Assembly (NCBI GenBank): GCA_040755715.1
Contig: JBFLXN010000144.1
Location: 1 to 6,997, forward strand
Length of the DNA stretch: 6,997 nt
Reading direction: 5' to 3'
From: JBFLXN01 sp040755715 [NCBI: Candidatus Edwardsbacteria bacterium]
Lineage (GTDB): Bacteria; Edwardsbacteria; AC1; JBFLXN01
Position 1 is the stretch's first letter. Each line of letters begins with the position of its first letter. Position numbers and translations under genes: made by a program. The notes beneath the pieces are model-generated. The model was not told where the DNA came from. It made no database searches and was given only the letters and a program-made list of their open reading frames with translations. Positions 1 to 3,480 of the stretch are shown here, piece by piece.

Positions 1-90
1 CTCTCTTGTATATGCAAGTCGCCACATTACCCTCTCATCATAATAAGCACTGGGAACTGAGGTATCAAGATACAAACTTTCTTTCTTCAT
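1..90 (-). CDS. PIN-domain protein, N-terminal fragment (gene runs off the window)
   Basis: Thirty codons read from an ATG at 88-90 to the window edge without a stop. The peptide contains LYLDTSVPSAYYDER, the typical first strand of a PIN-domain nuclease, where the Asp after LYL is the first metal-binding acidic residue. PIN proteins are Mg/Mn-dependent RNases and many are VapC-type toxins. A good Shine-Dalgarno sequence lies 8 nt upstream. The gene is too short for a default ORF list but is supported by start, ribosome binding site and motif together. It is the third cassette of the array: its start lies 54 nt inside the GTTATCT cassette boundary at 144-150. No antitoxin gene lies between that boundary and this start, so any antitoxin would have to follow the toxin, outside the window, or be absent. 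The remaining acidic residues are not visible, so activity cannot be judged. Confidence 0.72.
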   Translation of the reverse strand, partial: MKKESLYLDTSVPSAYYDERVMWRLAYTRE

Positions 91-98
91 TTGAGTTT

Positions 99-105
99 CT
101 CCTCT
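99..105 (-). promoter_or_regulatory. Ribosome binding site of the PIN-domain gene
   Basis: AGAGGAG on the minus strand, 8 nt before the ATG at 88-90. It is the main support for calling this short partial gene. A TATAAT-like hexamer lies just upstream around 125-130, but I see no convincing -35 partner, so I do not call a cassette promoter. Confidence 0.7.
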
Positions 106-213
106 CTATATTTTACCATAGATTATTATAGATCCGCAATGGCAGATAACGGGCTCGGGGTAAACGAAGTTGGTTGGACGAAAGCAAAGCTTTCGGACAA
201 ACAATTTTGTTTA

Positions 214-260
214 CCCCGTGATAGGCGAAGTGGCGCTTCGCCACGAAGCCTATCACGGGG
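214..260. repeat. Long hairpin within attC2
   Basis: A 13-bp perfect stem (CCCCGTGATAGGC at 214-226 against 248-260) continues through a GAA/GAA internal loop (227-229, 245-247) into a 6-bp stem GTGGCG/CGCCAC (230-235/239-244) capped by CTT. Bases 214-218 can instead pair with 156-160 as part of the GTTTACCCCG/CGGGGTAAAC repeat, so two alternative folds exist. Confidence 0.85.
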
Positions 261-273
261 CGAAGCCCCGAGC

Positions 274-330
274 CCGATAAGCAAAATGTTCCGCCGAAGG
301 CGGAAAGCGAAGCGTCATTTTGCTTATCGG
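274..330. repeat. 15-bp stem hairpin with inner hairpin within attC2
   Basis: CCGATAAGCAAAATG (274-288) pairs perfectly with 316-330. Directly inside it is TTCCGCC-GAA-GGCGGAA (289-305), followed by a small GC-GAA-GC element (307-313). There is no T-tract, so it does not read as a simple intrinsic terminator. Confidence 0.85.
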
Positions 331-434
331 CTGGTGGGTATCTGAAGTTTTCGCCGAAGGCGAAAATTTGGGCGAAGGCATACACCGTAGCCAGATACGC
401 TCTGTTAGGTGTAGTTGCCACCAGTTCTCAACAA

Positions 435-1439
435 CTATATTCTGTTTGCCATAGTGCATTTTAAACAAGCTTTCGGAGCCCGTGGTGTGTTAACAACTGA
501 ACGCAAATTCTCAAAGCGATTTCCATGCCAAATATCCCGGAAACTTTCTTTCTTCAAATCTCCAAGTGTGCCTGGCCAGGAACAACAAGCGGAGACTTCA
601 CCAACTTCGTTTACTGCGGCGAGAAAATTTGGCGCATTACATACAGTATTGAATTTTTCTATAGGAGTTCTTGTATAATGTTGACTTTGCCAATAGTATT
701 CCCCGATTCTCATTGGCTTTTCTGTTACAAAAAGGCCAACATCCATAGAGTAATTCACTGCCTCTTCTACCTTTCGAACATTTTCTTCAGTAAACTCAAT
801 TCTAAACTTGCTTGGTTCTATAACAAGTCCAAAACCAATTCTGGATAGACCTAGCTTATGTGCCATTTTGGCTATACCCACGAGTTCGTCTATGTTATCT
901 CTCTGGATAGTCGAATGTATTCCGATTTGTGGAGCATTAGGAAACTTGCGCTCATGAAGTTCAATTGCATTCTTGATGTTTGAAATAACACTCTTAAAGT
1001 TAGCCCCCCGGCGAATTTTCTCAAAAGTATTTTGTGAACACCCATCAACTGATACATCTATTTCAACACCATGATTCATTAGGATAGAACAGCGATCATT
1101 GTCTAATAAGGTACCATTCGTAAAGAGGTATATTCGAGCATTTTTGCGTTTATGCAGACATAAATAATCTAAATACTTTTCAACTTCCCGAGGTTTTAAA
1201 AGGAGGGTTTCTCCCCAATTGAATATGGAATAGTTGAGCACCCCTGGAGATACTTGATCAACTAAAGAACGAAATAATGCAAAATCGATCCTTCCGTGCA
1301 GTTCGGTTGGGGTATTTCTGCACATCTGACAATATATATTACAGTCTGCAATAAGCTCAACCCAGATGTGTGAGGGGAAATGGACAGATAGAGGTGCACC
1401 CAGAGAAGACAGCATTTCATCAACTATGTTATGTATCAT
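435..1439 (-). CDS. Radical SAM/SPASM-domain protein (cassette-borne)
   Basis: A 334-residue protein. The radical SAM cluster motif CNIYCQMC places Cys33, Cys37 and Cys40 in the CX3CX2C spacing that binds the [4Fe-4S] cluster used to cleave S-adenosylmethionine. The barrel follows, with a GE-type SAM-contact motif in FNWGET (73-78), FTNGT at 106-110 and VDG at 131-133. A C-terminal SPASM-like region (about 267-328) contributes Cys267, Cys285, Cys286, Cys325 and Cys328 for extra Fe-S clusters, with LGDL and IWHG landmarks between. SPASM enzymes often modify peptides, but no precursor peptide gene is visible nearby, so the substrate is unknown. I chose the ATG at 1437-1439 because AGGTGA sits 4 nt upstream. 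A TTG at 1470-1472 would add 11 residues but lies in the cassette-end repeat. It is the cargo of the second cassette, with attC-like sites on both sides. Confidence 0.9.
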   Translation of the reverse strand: MIHNIVDEMLSSLGAPLSVHFPSHIWVELIADCNIYCQMCRNTPTELHGRIDFALFRSLVDQVSPGVLNYSIFNWGETLLLKPREVEKYLDYLCLHKRKNARIYLFTNGTLLDNDRCSILMNHGVEIDVSVDGCSQNTFEKIRRGANFKSVISNIKNAIELHERKFPNAPQIGIHSTIQRDNIDELVGIAKMAHKLGLSRIGFGLVIEPSKFRIEFTEENVRKVEEAVNYSMDVGLFVTEKPMRIGEYYWQSQHYTRTPIEKFNTVCNAPNFLAAVNEVGEVSACCSWPGTLGDLKKESFRDIWHGNRFENLRSVVNTPRAPKACLKCTMANRI

Positions 1440-1443
1440 AACT

Positions 1444-1449
1444 TCACCT
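1444..1449 (-). promoter_or_regulatory. Ribosome binding site deciding the radical SAM start
   Basis: AGGTGA on the minus strand, 4 nt before the ATG at 1437-1439. The upstream TTG at 1470-1472 has no comparable site, so the shorter protein is preferred. Confidence 0.7.
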
Positions 1450-1476
1450 TTTCGGCTTTTGGAAACAGGCAATTAC

Positions 1477-1565
1477 ACCTAACGGTTCCAGCATAAAAGA
1501 AGTTTTTGCGAAGCAAAAATTTGGGTGAGCGCCGTAAGGCACGAACCTTTTATGCTGTGTTATAC
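1477..1565 (-). repeat. attC-like cassette recombination site (attC1), 89 bp
   Basis: On the minus strand the order is R''-like GTATAAC (1559-1565), L'' AGCATAAAAG (1547-1556), a central region, L' CTTTTATGCT (1490-1499), a 6-nt spacer, then R' GTTAGGT (1477-1483), which fits the integron consensus GTTRRRY. The two L arms are perfectly complementary over 10 bp. The centre has a hairpin TTTTTGC-GAA-GCAAAAA (1503-1519, plus-strand reading) and a smaller GCC-GTAA-GGC (1531-1540). Length and layout match classical attC sites. The grpB-family stop codon (1550-1552) lies inside the L'' arm, as is often seen for integron cassette genes. It separates the first and second cassettes. Confidence 0.85.
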
Positions 1566-2119
1566 GCAGTTGCATTTTCTCCTGCCTCTTTTCTTGCCTT
1601 TTCTAGTACCTCGTTAATATATGATGTTTTAAGCCCTGTGTATTTGGGTCGATCTGAGCCGGCTTCTGTACTCCATCGTTTTTTAAGCTCATAGTATCTT
1701 TTAGCTTCATCAGGGTGCTGTCTTAGATAATTCCGAAATAGCAACTTATCTTCATGCTCCCTGCTTCCAAAAAATGTTATATGGAAATGTACGTGTAATT
1801 CCTTTTCTTTATACTTGTATGGTCCTGAGATAAACAACCTTTCTGGGAATGTGCCAAATCCAGGTTCGGGATTAAACTTGTATCCTTTGGATTCTAACAA
1901 TTCGACCATCTTTCGCATGTGCTCTTGCTTTGTTATTATTAAAATATCTACGACTTCTTTTCCACCCAAACCTACAACTGCAGTGCTTCCTACATGTTCG
2001 ACCTCTATCGGAAATGGAACCAAATCACAAATGAAACGCTTTATATCGTCGAATATCTCAGGTGCTTTGCCATCGTAGGGGAGTATTCTTACGGCTAAAT
2101 TTCGACCTTCGTCAACCAT
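1550..2119 (-). CDS. GrpB/UPF0157 family protein (cassette-borne)
   Basis: A 189-residue protein, close to the usual GrpB-family size of about 170-180. The hallmark segment EHVGSTAVVGLGGKEVVDI spans residues 41-59 and matches the nucleotidyltransferase-like GS core followed by an acidic residue (Asp58). The second conserved block is the HVHFHITFFG stretch followed by a basic FRNYLRQHP helix. The fold belongs to the nucleotidyltransferase superfamily, but no activity is firmly established for the family. Where most members have VPGL and KP, this protein has Val49 and Glu55. I chose the ATG at 2117-2119 because GAGGT sits 4 nt upstream; the longer reading to 2167 would translate the cassette boundary and attI-like repeats. 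The last residues (ATAYNTA) are encoded by the R''/L'' part of attC1, so the C-terminus was set by the recombination site. It is the first cassette after the recombinase. Confidence 0.9.
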   Translation of the reverse strand: MVDEGRNLAVRILPYDGKAPEIFDDIKRFICDLVPFPIEVEHVGSTAVVGLGGKEVVDILIITKQEHMRKMVELLESKGYKFNPEPGFGTFPERLFISGPYKYKEKELHVHFHITFFGSREHEDKLLFRNYLRQHPDEAKRYYELKKRWSTEAGSDRPKYTGLKTSYINEVLEKARKEAGENATAYNTA

Positions 2120-2123
2120 TTTT

Positions 2124-2130
2124 ACCTCAC
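2124..2130 (-). promoter_or_regulatory. Ribosome binding site deciding the GrpB-family start
   Basis: GTGAGGT on the minus strand, 4 nt before the ATG at 2117-2119. It supports the 189-residue product over the 205-residue reading that starts at 2167. Confidence 0.7.
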
Positions 2131-2135
2131 TTACA

Positions 2136-2217
2136 CCGCAATTGCGTATAACGGCTAATAACCGCATTATTGCGATTATCCCTCCAAATTGGTATATTAT
2201 CCGCAGTATTGCGGATA
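2136..2217 (-). other. attI-like site between recombinase and first cassette
   Basis: This stretch lies between the recombinase stop and the first cassette gene. The first cassette boundary is GTTATAC at 2146-2152 (minus strand). Three related near-palindromes occur: CCGCA-A-TTGCG (2136-2146), CCGCA-TTA-TTGCG (2162-2174) and CCGCA-GTA-TTGCG (2201-2213). The last extends to an 8-bp stem (2198-2205/2210-2217). The two outer copies form an imperfect direct repeat, 15 of 18 bases identical. In class 1 integrons attI carries direct repeats bound by the integrase, so this layout suggests a primary insertion site. The function is inferred from position and pattern. Confidence 0.55.
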
Positions 2218-2239
2218 TTTTTCATATAGCCAAACACCC

Positions 2240-3349
2240 TTAATTCTTGTTTTCCTTCCCTCCTCCCTTCCTTAAATTGTCTAGAGGGCTCTTAATTCTG
2301 CCTAAATCTCTGGTGCTTACATGGGTATATATTTCAGTAGTTTTTGAACTCTTATGACCTAATAGCTCTTGTATGTATCGCAAATCTGTTCCGCCTCCCA
2401 GTAAGTGAGTAGCGAAACTATGGCGGAAAGTATGCACTGACGCTTTTTTCTTTATATCAGCTTCCTTGAGTGCACTCTCAAAAATCGCTTCTACCGTTCT
2501 CGTAGAAATATGTCTGTCTGGTTTTGCCCCAGGGAATAACCACTTATCAGGTTCATATTCTCTCCAATACCTTCTTAATTCCTCAAGTGCCACTTCTGAA
2601 AGAACCGTATATCTGTCCTTCCTACCTTTAGCACCTTTAATGAAGATAAGGTGTCTATCGCTATCAATATCCTCTACTCGCAATTTTACTATTTCGCTTA
2701 CTCTAAGTCCAGCAGAATAAACCAGCATCATAACTGCCCTGTGTTTTAGGTTTTTGATTGCCTGAAGTATTTGCCTGACTTCTTTCTGACTGAGAACAGT
2801 GGGCAACTTTTGCTCTTTTCTCGGTCTTGGAAGGTTACCTACTATCCTTGGCATCTGTAATACATTGTCATATAAGAACTTTATAGCACTTACTGCCTGA
2901 TTATGGTAAGACCTTGATACCCTTTCCTTATCTATCAGATGAAGCATGTATTCCCTAACATGGCCTTCGTCCAGTTCTTTCGGGTCTTTCTTGAAGTGCC
3001 GTATGTAGCAATCTATATGATGCAGATATGCCTTTCTGGTTTTCTGGCTATATCCCCTCAACTTGAGTTCTTTTTTTACTGCATCTATTATTTGTCCTTG
3101 ATTTAGAACCTCTATCTTGGTTTTTGGAAGTTTCGATCGCAGGACAGGGTCTATATCAATTTCTTCGCCTTCAAAGACCTTTAAAACCTTCTCTAAGATT
3201 CCCTTGGCATTCGGAAAACTCCAATGCTTTCCATCCGGGTGCCATCTCCGACCCTCAATGGTTTTAATCTTTCCTACAAAGTCAGGGTTATAGGGAAAAG
3301 CAACTACTATCTCATCCGAGGGACCCTTTCTAATCTCTATACTTGGCAT
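2240..3349 (-). CDS. Tyrosine recombinase, XerC/D-IntI type, with N-terminal extra module
   Basis: A 369-residue site-specific recombinase. The core-binding SAM-like domain spans about residues 86-172 (RGYSQKTRKAYLHHI ... NQAVSAIKFLY), resembling the type shared by IntI and related Xer-like enzymes. The catalytic domain spans about 182-345 with all expected residues: Arg216 (AGLRVSE), Lys241 in the beta-hairpin, His306 and Arg309 (HTFRHSF), His332 (LGH) and the nucleophile Tyr341 (EIYTHV). Only about 93 residues separate Arg box I from box II, as in XerD, so the extra insertion that defines integron integrases is absent. Residues 1-75 form an added module with a RRWHPDGKHWSFP motif that I cannot assign firmly. 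It has its own upstream promoter but only a weak Shine-Dalgarno signal at the ATG. It is transcribed towards the attI-like site and cassettes, which makes it the obvious candidate for moving them. Confidence 0.92.
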   Translation of the reverse strand: MPSIEIRKGPSDEIVVAFPYNPDFVGKIKTIEGRRWHPDGKHWSFPNAKGILEKVLKVFEGEEIDIDPVLRSKLPKTKIEVLNQGQIIDAVKKELKLRGYSQKTRKAYLHHIDCYIRHFKKDPKELDEGHVREYMLHLIDKERVSRSYHNQAVSAIKFLYDNVLQMPRIVGNLPRPRKEQKLPTVLSQKEVRQILQAIKNLKHRAVMMLVYSAGLRVSEIVKLRVEDIDSDRHLIFIKGAKGRKDRYTVLSEVALEELRRYWREYEPDKWLFPGAKPDRHISTRTVEAIFESALKEADIKKKASVHTFRHSFATHLLGGGTDLRYIQELLGHKSSKTTEIYTHVSTRDLGRIKSPLDNLRKGGGKENKN

Positions 3350-3390
3350 AGTTTGGTAGAAGATCAGTGCTACACCTTATTTTTGGTTTT

Positions 3391-3420
3391 ATTCTAACAC
3401 ACTTTCACTTTCCTTGTCAA
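3391..3420 (-). promoter_or_regulatory. Sigma70-type promoter of the recombinase
   Basis: On the minus strand a perfect -35 TTGACA (3415-3420) and a -10 TAGAAT (3391-3396) are separated by 18 nt. The -10 lies about 41 nt before the recombinase ATG. I see no clear terminator between the recombinase stop and the first cassette, so transcripts from here could continue into the cassettes. Confidence 0.75.
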
Positions 3421-3447: not shown

Positions 3448-3480
3448 CCACAGATTTCCACAGATTTTCACAGAATTTTC
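3448..3480. repeat. Short tandem repeat, about 10-11 bp unit, three copies
   Basis: CCACAGATTT (3448-3457), CCACAGATTT (3458-3467), then a diverged TCACAGAATTTT. Related CTGTG-containing bits recur at 3509-3516 and 3550-3557. The role is unknown; it resembles dispersed intergenic repeats. Confidence 0.7.

What the first reader, a model, noticed from the sequence alone, without database searches (positions are those of the whole stretch)
1..3420. Integron-like platform driven by a recombinase that is not a canonical IntI
One tyrosine recombinase, an attI-like repeat region and three same-strand cassettes separated by attC-like sites lie in perfect order. Yet the recombinase has no IntI-specific insertion (Arg box I to box II is about 93 residues, as in XerD), and it points into the array instead of away from it. 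Either a Xer-like enzyme has an integron-type role here, or a cassette cluster without IntI happens to sit beside an unrelated recombinase. The first option would be a little-described system.
Basis: partly seen in the sequence, partly recalled or inferred. Interest (0 to 1): 0.85.

Follow-up and report, generated by a model that had tools for sequence, protein, structure and literature searches.

The report
Integron run by a non-IntI recombinase
A gene-capturing platform built like an integron, but run by a recombinase that lacks the part thought essential to integrons; close copies sit in many bacteria and some archaea.

Summary
Window 2240-3349(-) encodes a recombinase with all catalytic residues and no IntI insertion (Arg-Arg distance 93). 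It points into an attI-like palindromic site and a same-strand cassette array. Relatives share this: of 83 loci, 59 had >=600 nt downstream, and a strict array walker found cassettes in 38 of 59, against 1 of 590 shuffles, 2 of 610 upstream windows and 2 of 74 viral-contig relatives. In 47 locus pairs with homologous recombinases, 11 keep homology >50 nt past the stop; 5 of these end exactly on GTTA, the predicted crossover. In the tree the family groups apart from XerC/D, as sister to IntI. Most loci carry an N-terminal HARP-like module, related to branched-DNA-binding domains. The attC-like sites have 15-nt arms with a conserved A.C mismatch at position 11 on top (G.T below) and ungapped inner stems. 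Best reading: a second integron lineage, which works like an integron but is not an IntI integron. Recombination itself is untested. Nine integron searches of an open-access library listed no paper I recognised as describing it.

The parts
2240..3349 (-). tyrosine recombinase, 369 aa, no IntI-specific insertion; points towards the array
3140..3349 (-). N-terminal HARP-like module (about residues 1-70)
   Evidence: PF07443 18.1 bits, under its cut-off of 25; profile to SMARCAL1 HARP 4o66 E=6.5e-5; fold
2146..2219 (-). attI-like site: two palindromes, then crossover motif G|TTATAC at 2152-2146
   Evidence: same site in L082, then different cassettes
1559..2151 (-). cassette 1 up to its R'' core; paired ends 2152-2138 and 1573-1559 with A/G mismatch at position 11
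1550..2119 (-). GrpB-family protein, 189 aa from the ATG at 2119 (205 aa from an upstream ATG); stop codon lies inside attC1
1477..1565 (-). attC-like site 1, 89 nt: GTATAAC - A - 11-bp stem ... stem - GAACC - GTTAGGT
404..1482 (-). cassette 2 up to its R'' core; paired ends 1483-1468 and 419-404
435..1439 (-). radical SAM/SPASM protein, 334 aa from the ATG at 1439
322..410 (-). attC-like site 2; its distal core reads GATAAGC instead of GTTxxxx
276..328 (-). ORF-less hairpin (mini-cassette?) GATAAGCAAAATG ... CATTTTGCTTATC
   Evidence: similar elements elsewhere
144..282 (-). attC-like hairpin 3, long and compound, ends in GTTATCT
1..150 (-). start of cassette 3; ORF fragment from ATG at 90, cut by the window edge
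   Evidence: no Pfam hit

Best explanation
An integron-type platform. The recombinase encoded at 3349-2240 recognises the attI site at the 3' end of its own gene and inserts circular gene cassettes there at G|TT. Each cassette carries an attC-like hairpin made of an outer arm (its own start paired with its own end, about 15 bp) and an inner stem, and is probably recombined as the folded bottom strand. Shown from sequence: recombinase, attI, arrays, pairing logic, a breakpoint on GTTA in 5 of 11 informative pairs, and strand-asymmetric folding. Inferred: that this enzyme performs the reaction, that the substrate is single-stranded, and that the HARP-like module helps to recognise the folded site in place of the missing IntI insertion.
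For: Strict walker: arrays in 38 of 59 loci (66 cassettes) versus 1 of 590 shuffles and 2 of 610 upstream windows. Viral-contig relatives: 2 of 74 with enough DNA (of 78), both copies of one AT-rich match. attC found by inner stem alone (outer arms not used): 64 consecutive pairs; a cassette's own two ends agree at 9 variable positions at 0.776 versus 0.353 with swapped partners (maximum 0.415 in 2000 shuffles). Position 11 is A at the start and G in the reverse complement of the end in 57 of 66 and in 37 of the 43 well-paired cassettes. Of 11 pairs whose homology runs >50 nt past both stops (47 pairs in all), 5 end exactly on GTTA (W/L082, L085/L100, L100/L116, L155/B_L244, B_L247/B_L248), one ends 1 base past it (L085/L116) and one 2 bases before the GTT (L127/L128). 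In 60 genomes of the class of G014 (Arundinibacter), 35 have a family match; of 27 of the 55 listed places that I fetched, 22 had >500 nt downstream and 13 of these show strict arrays, up to 7 cassettes. 59 of 66 cassettes carry their longest ORF on the recombinase's strand. Modelled circle-junction sites fold better as bottom strand in 54 of 62, as top in 8. All catalytic residues present.
Against: No recombination was observed. 21 of 59 loci fail the strict walker; in the Bacteroidia set 9 of 22 do, some because the contig ends, but L240, L256, L262, L264 and L265 show no clear array. Of the 11 informative pairs, 4 do not end at or next to GTT: L091/L108 7 bases past it, B_L248/B_L252 16 past it, L084/L085 and L086/L100 well before it; the other 36 of 47 lose homology before +50. 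Six loci without a detectable HARP-like module were not obviously cut (L109, L122, L135, L151, L152, L001); L109, L135, L151 and L001 have a strict array, so the module cannot be strictly required. 5 of 26 genomes also hold an IntI over the cut-off. The strict criteria are not exclusive: 3 of 21 canonical cassettes pass them, and some walker hits may be false (L100 looks so). Pfam HARP and TIGR02249 cut-offs are not reached. Part of the outer-arm pairing (to position 10-11) also exists in canonical cassettes.
Confidence: 0.85

Rival explanations
1. The cassettes belong to a canonical IntI acting in trans (an array that has lost or never had its IntI), and this recombinase is an unrelated neighbour.
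For: 5 of 26 relatives' genomes carry a protein over the IntI cut-off. Pairing of cassette ends to position 10-11 is shared with canonical arrays, and 3 of 21 canonical cassettes pass the new-type criteria.
Against: 21 of 26 genomes have none over the cut-off (genomes may be incomplete). In the 38 walker-positive loci the first cassette starts 39-264 nt after this recombinase's stop (the walker looked at the first 400 nt). Inner stems are ungapped, unlike 23 of 24 canonical sites. Homology of recombinase plus attI ends at the cassette border in several pairs.
Confidence: 0.06
2. The enzyme moves cassettes as double-stranded circles, like an ordinary Xer-type recombinase, and the hairpins are only inverted binding sites.
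For: No IntI insertion, so the known reader of folded attC is missing. attI holds palindromes that look like ordinary paired recombinase-binding sites.
Against: Arm sequences vary from cassette to cassette but pair within each (0.776 versus 0.353), which asks for folding, not for a shared sequence. A.C on top becomes G.T below at position 11, and the bottom strand folds better in 54 of 62.
Confidence: 0.07
3. Tandem non-autonomous transposon-like elements with terminal inverted repeats have accumulated beside a recombinase.
For: Each complete window unit has inverted ends; ORF-less units exist.
Against: The ends differ between neighbouring units. 59 of 66 units have the longest ORF on one strand. 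Homology between loci ends at the first unit in several pairs.
Confidence: 0.02

Closest known systems
Canonical integron (IntI + attI + attC cassettes)
   Same: Recombinase gene next to attI, same-strand cassettes, GTTxxxx / xxxxAAC cores, crossover at G|TT, hairpin attC, pairing between the start and end of one cassette.
   Different: Recombinase lacks the IntI additional domain (69 versus 110-111 residues) and scores 236 bits against TIGR02249's 265; most loci have a HARP-like N-terminus (74 of 83); arms reach 15 nt with a mismatch at position 11, whereas 21 canonical cassettes stop pairing at 10-11; inner stems are ungapped (1 of 24 canonical sites); the gene points into the array.
Treponema-type integrons (intI transcribed toward attI)
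   Same: Recombinase transcribed toward attI and in the cassettes' direction (PMC3607928, passages).
   Different: That paper calls the enzyme IntI; whether it has the additional domain was not tested here. The paper treats Treponema species only.
Archaeal integrons (PMC9668308)
   Same: Arrays in archaea; attI immediately downstream of the integrase gene (passages).
   Different: Those enzymes have the IntI additional domain (passages). L086 and L095 here lack it and come from Micrarchaeota and Altarchaeum records.
XerC/XerD/XerA tyrosine recombinases
   Same: Domain plan and spacing of SAM-like plus catalytic domains; by VIA-align XerA 4a8e Z 22.9 (rmsd 9.0, 259 aligned) ranks above IntI4 2a3v Z 20.3 (rmsd 3.9, 255 aligned), while Foldseek and phmmer rank 2a3v first; NF040815 cut-off met.
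   Different: XerC/D form their own clade (100/100); no cassette arrays are known for them (recalled). XerA was not in the tree.
HARP / DRD junction-binding domains (SMARCAL1, UvsW, XPB)
   Same: Profile match to 4o66 E=6.5e-5; UvsW 1rif Z 7.8, rmsd 1.9, 62 aligned; five strands plus two helices as described for HARP (PMC4666394, passages).
   Different: Fused to a tyrosine recombinase instead of a helicase; Pfam cut-off not met; Foldseek gives nothing under E 0.001 (4o66 at 0.08); eIF1 chains score as high as XPB (Z 6.5 versus 6.7).

Membership tests
Integron with IntI (TIGR02249) | IntI additional domain (I2) in the catalytic domain | tested here: not met
   69 residues KDR-HTxRHSF versus 110-111 in 7 IntI
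Integron with IntI (TIGR02249) | TIGR02249 curated cut-off 265 bits | tested here: not met
   236.1 bits
Integron, system level | attI beside the recombinase gene, insertion point G|TT | tested here: met
   of 11 informative pairs 5 end on GTTA, 1 is 1 base past it, 1 is 2 bases before GTT, 4 elsewhere
Integron, system level | attC-like hairpins between cassettes | tested here: met
   with differences in arms and stems
Integron, system level | Cassettes mostly one ORF in one orientation | tested here: met
   longest ORF on the recombinase strand in 59 of 66, 3 opposite, 4 without ORF >=60 aa
Integron, system level | intI divergent from the array (typical layout) | tested here: not met
   the Treponema exception is known
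Integron, system level | Recombination of the folded bottom strand of attC | not testable with these tools
   only a folding asymmetry was computed
Integron, system level | Cassette promoter Pc and SOS control of the integrase | not tested
   no call
XerC / XerD | TIGR02224 / TIGR02225 cut-offs and clade | tested here: not met
   187.6 and 190.2 bits against 335.15 and 329.6; outside the Xer clade
NF040815 (XerA_Arch, 'site-specific tyrosine recombinase/integron integrase') | curated cut-off 220 bits | tested here: met
   230.9 bits
HARP (PF07443) | Pfam gathering score 25 | tested here: not met
   18.1 bits for the window; 18 of 38 members match at E<=1, best 0.00025
HARP-like fold | match to solved HARP/DRD domains | tested here: inconclusive
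   4o66 top by profile, E=6.5e-5; UvsW Z 7.8 (rmsd 1.9, 62 aligned), XPB 6p66 6.7 (2.7, 63), eIF1 3j80 6.5 (2.7, 66), 4o66 4.1 (1.8, 48), none at 8 or more; no Foldseek E under 0.001

The most novel reading that the evidence does not exclude
A second integron lineage, sister to IntI and spanning bacteria and archaea, recombines folded single-stranded cassettes without the I2 insertion. It reads the fold another way (for many members probably with a HARP-like junction-binding module) and its sites code strand choice through A.C/G.T positions instead of extrahelical bases. It would make integrons common in groups reported to have very few, such as Bacteroidota.
Probability: 0.55. Interest if true: 0.95.

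Novelty: new variant of a known kind. Interest (0 to 1): 0.87.

Why it matters
One published view is that acquiring the I2 insertion opened recombination of folded single-stranded cassettes, and it notes a lack of intermediates (PMC7790495, passages); the insertion is called essential for integron function (PMC8138268, passages). A sister lineage that carries cassette arrays without it makes this directly testable. It also changes the map: IntegronFinder 2.0 reported one complete integron in Bacteroidetes proper and one in Firmicutes (PMC9024848, passages), though a review lists both phyla among those with integrons (PMC8618304, one passage). Here 35 of 60 sampled genomes of the class of Arundinibacter hold a family match and 13 of 22 fetched places there start strict arrays. 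Contigs often break just after the recombinase (30 of 80 within 1 kb downstream versus 7 of 80 upstream), which may help explain why it was missed.

Tried and rejected
First attC detector (cores plus stem) was too strict: 8 sites downstream, 1 upstream, 0 in shuffles, none in the window. The loose walker had visible background: 44 of 59 versus 7 of 59 shuffled and 8 of 77 upstream, so I report the strict one. Inner-stem-only detection with fixed cores gave 23 core-matching new cassettes; canonical sites needed a gapped stem (24 sites, 21 cassettes, from L281 and L283 only; L280 and L282 gave none). Weakness of that control, found on re-checking: one search scanned only the DNA upstream of each IntI, and only 400 nt on either side of it, whereas L283's 19 sites lie on the 3' side of its IntI (20634-36737), so their link to that IntI is unclear. 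therefore scored the 24 canonical sites directly: 1 of 24 has an ungapped inner stem score of 9 or more, and 3 of 21 canonical cassettes pass the new-type criteria. Rfam found nothing. Megablast of window 1-3420 against plasmids: no match. One pattern for the mini-cassette was wrong and matched nothing; redone. I considered and dropped 'XerC/D housekeeping enzyme' and 'phage integrase'. That the HARP-like module replaces I2 in every member is rejected, since members without it have arrays. No HARP row appeared with the full-length model, hence the separate module model. Linear (not circle-junction) attC: bottom better in 47, top in 12 of 62. The module profile was built from many of the same proteins it then found.

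Rows dropped: 24 of 83 loci with <600 nt downstream; 4 of 78 viral-contig relatives likewise; recombinases with internal stops or frameshifts left out of the tree (among them L082, whose gene reads as two ORFs); 28 of 55 listed Bacteroidia places not fetched, 7 of them full-length at contig edges (G037, G067, G039:C16, G054:C3, G040, G084, G063); L131 and L002 left out of A2; 21 rows removed before the careful tree (76 of 97 kept). Two of the 27 fetched Bacteroidia loci (G014, G021) are the same places as L115 and L156.
Full report
What is there. The window's minus strand reads: RND transporter (6843-3718), recombinase (3349-2240), attI-like site (2219-2146), GrpB cassette, attC, radical SAM cassette, compound attC, start of a third cassette. 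The recombinase has R216, K241, K244, H306, R309, H332 and Y341 and an Arg-Arg distance of 93. TIGR02249 (IntI) scores 236 bits, under its cut-off of 265; NF040815, named 'site-specific tyrosine recombinase/integron integrase', scores 230.9 over its cut-off of 220.

Is it more than chance? Printing the DNA after each stop codon showed a similar layout in many of them, by eye: one or two palindromes, then ..GTTA, then a cassette. I then walked arrays from that GTT: the start of a cassette must pair with its own end, and an inner stem must follow before the next GTT. With strict settings 38 of 59 loci with enough DNA gave 66 cassettes; 1 of 590 shuffles, 2 of 610 upstream windows and 2 of 74 viral-contig relatives did. 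Positive loci include records titled Atribacteria, Nitrospirae, Nitrospinae, Aminicenantes, Bacillota/Paenibacillus, Bacteroidetes, Micrarchaeota and Altarchaeum. Because the walker selects paired ends, I repeated it finding attC by the inner stem alone: own ends agree at 0.776 versus 0.353 for swapped partners (maximum 0.415 in 2000 shuffles).

Insertion point. In 47 blastn pairs of loci with homologous recombinases (two pairs that are the same place fetched twice, L115 and L156, set aside), 11 keep homology more than 50 nt past both stop codons. Of these, 5 end exactly on GTTA, 1 is one base past it, 1 is two bases before the GTT, 1 is 7 past, 1 is 16 past, and 2 end well before. W and L082 (Atribacteria UBA4082, 74% DNA identity over 958 nt) end on GTTA, then carry different cassettes: GrpB and radical SAM in the window, a ClpP-like SDH protease and a GNAT in L082. 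L085 and L100, two copies from one genome (G003), also part on GTTA.

How far it reaches. In genomes drawn from taxonomic groups around named loci, a family match was found in 35 of 60 (class of Arundinibacter, E<=1e-60), 11 of 41 (class of Nitrospirae G002, E<=1e-60), 13 of 119 (phylum of Paenibacillus, E<=1e-80) and 9 of 29 (phylum of Altarchaeum, E<=1e-80). These counts include matches without the N-terminal module. Of 55 Bacteroidia places listed I fetched 27; 22 had more than 500 nt downstream and 13 of these had strict arrays, up to 7 cassettes. Contigs end within 1 kb downstream of the recombinase in 30 of 80 loci, upstream in 7 of 80.

Kinship. In the careful tree (76 rows, insertion columns removed) 7 IntI form a clade (100/100), 7 Xer another (100/100), and the window family with its phage and other insert-less relatives forms the sister of IntI (91/81) (the quick tree of 97 rows agrees at 82). 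XerA was not included. Of 26 relatives' genomes, 5 hold an IntI over the cut-off.

How it may work. The attC-like sites have xxxxAAC-A-stem...stem-xAAC/ACC-GTT(A/G)xxx, 64-200 nt. Compared with 21 canonical cassettes, whose end pairing fades after position 10-11, these arms continue to 15 with one conserved mismatch at 11, A at the start and G in the reverse complement of the end in 57 of 66. On the top strand this is A.C; on the bottom strand G.T, which can pair. The bottom strand of the modelled circle junction folds better in 54 of 62. An ungapped inner stem score of 9 or more occurs in 1 of 24 canonical sites but in 118 sites found by that very criterion in 78 new loci (threshold 9.5), so the extrahelical bases that IntI's I2 helix is known to read (recalled) seem absent from many of these stems. 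The canonical control is small, and most of it comes from one array (L283) on the 3' side of its IntI. The enzyme lacks I2. Instead 74 of 83 loci have an N-terminal module (profile hit E<=1) whose profile matches SMARCAL1 HARP (E=6.5e-5) and whose model resembles UvsW and XPB domains, though eIF1 chains score alike; HARP is described as junction-specific DNA-binding (PMC4666394, passages). I infer that this module helps to recognise the folded site; members without it that still have arrays speak against strict need.

What is known. Treponema intI also points into the array. Archaeal integrons described so far have the IntI domain. [quoted passage not shown] Ten searches of an open-access library, nine of them on integrons, listed no paper that I recognised as describing this system; I saw listings with titles and abstract starts, in some searches only the best of more hits, and subscription papers and preprints are not held.

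Verdict. It works like an integron (confidence 0.85 from sequence alone); it is not an IntI integron, since the defining domain is absent. I rate it a new variant of a known kind, with high interest because it bears on how single-strand cassette recombination arose and on where integrons occur. The re-check mended the breakpoint counts and the canonical control; the odds did not change.

Noticed in passing
window 276-328; L082 10518-10550; L108 9168-9200 and 12724-12756: A short ORF-less hairpin TAAGCAAAATG...CATTTTGCTTA occurs in two Atribacteria loci (exact pattern in L082, L108 and L176, the last from the same genome as L108; 3 of 305 loci); the window has a similar element between two attC-like hairpins. 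Possibly a mobile empty cassette. 0 matches in viral contigs.
   Followed up: partly
L082 7282-7364, 11379-11461, 12600-12682: Three similar 83-nt palindromic repeats (GGGGTCAGGTCTTCACATTTGAC...; 87-98% identical) around the Atribacteria array.
   Followed up: no
L163, L164, L165, L187, L188: Canonical IntI-type proteins of 412-454 aa with an N-terminal extension; the 260 nt printed after each did not look to me like the new-type arrays.
   Followed up: no
L159, first and fourth walker cassettes: Two cassettes of one Arenibacter array give the same 200-aa protein, as if a cassette had been duplicated; not checked further.
   Followed up: no
L283 20634-36737 (Gemmatirosa plasmid): 19 canonical-looking attC sites lie on the 3' side of the IntI at 18001-18942 and read toward it; which integrase owns this array is unclear.
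   Followed up: no
window 1550-1565: The GrpB reading frame ends inside attC1, so the cassette's stop codon is part of the recombination site.
   Followed up: partly
window 3449-3475: Non-coding stretch upstream of the recombinase with a CACAGATTTCCACAGATTTTCACAG run; not analysed.
   Followed up: no
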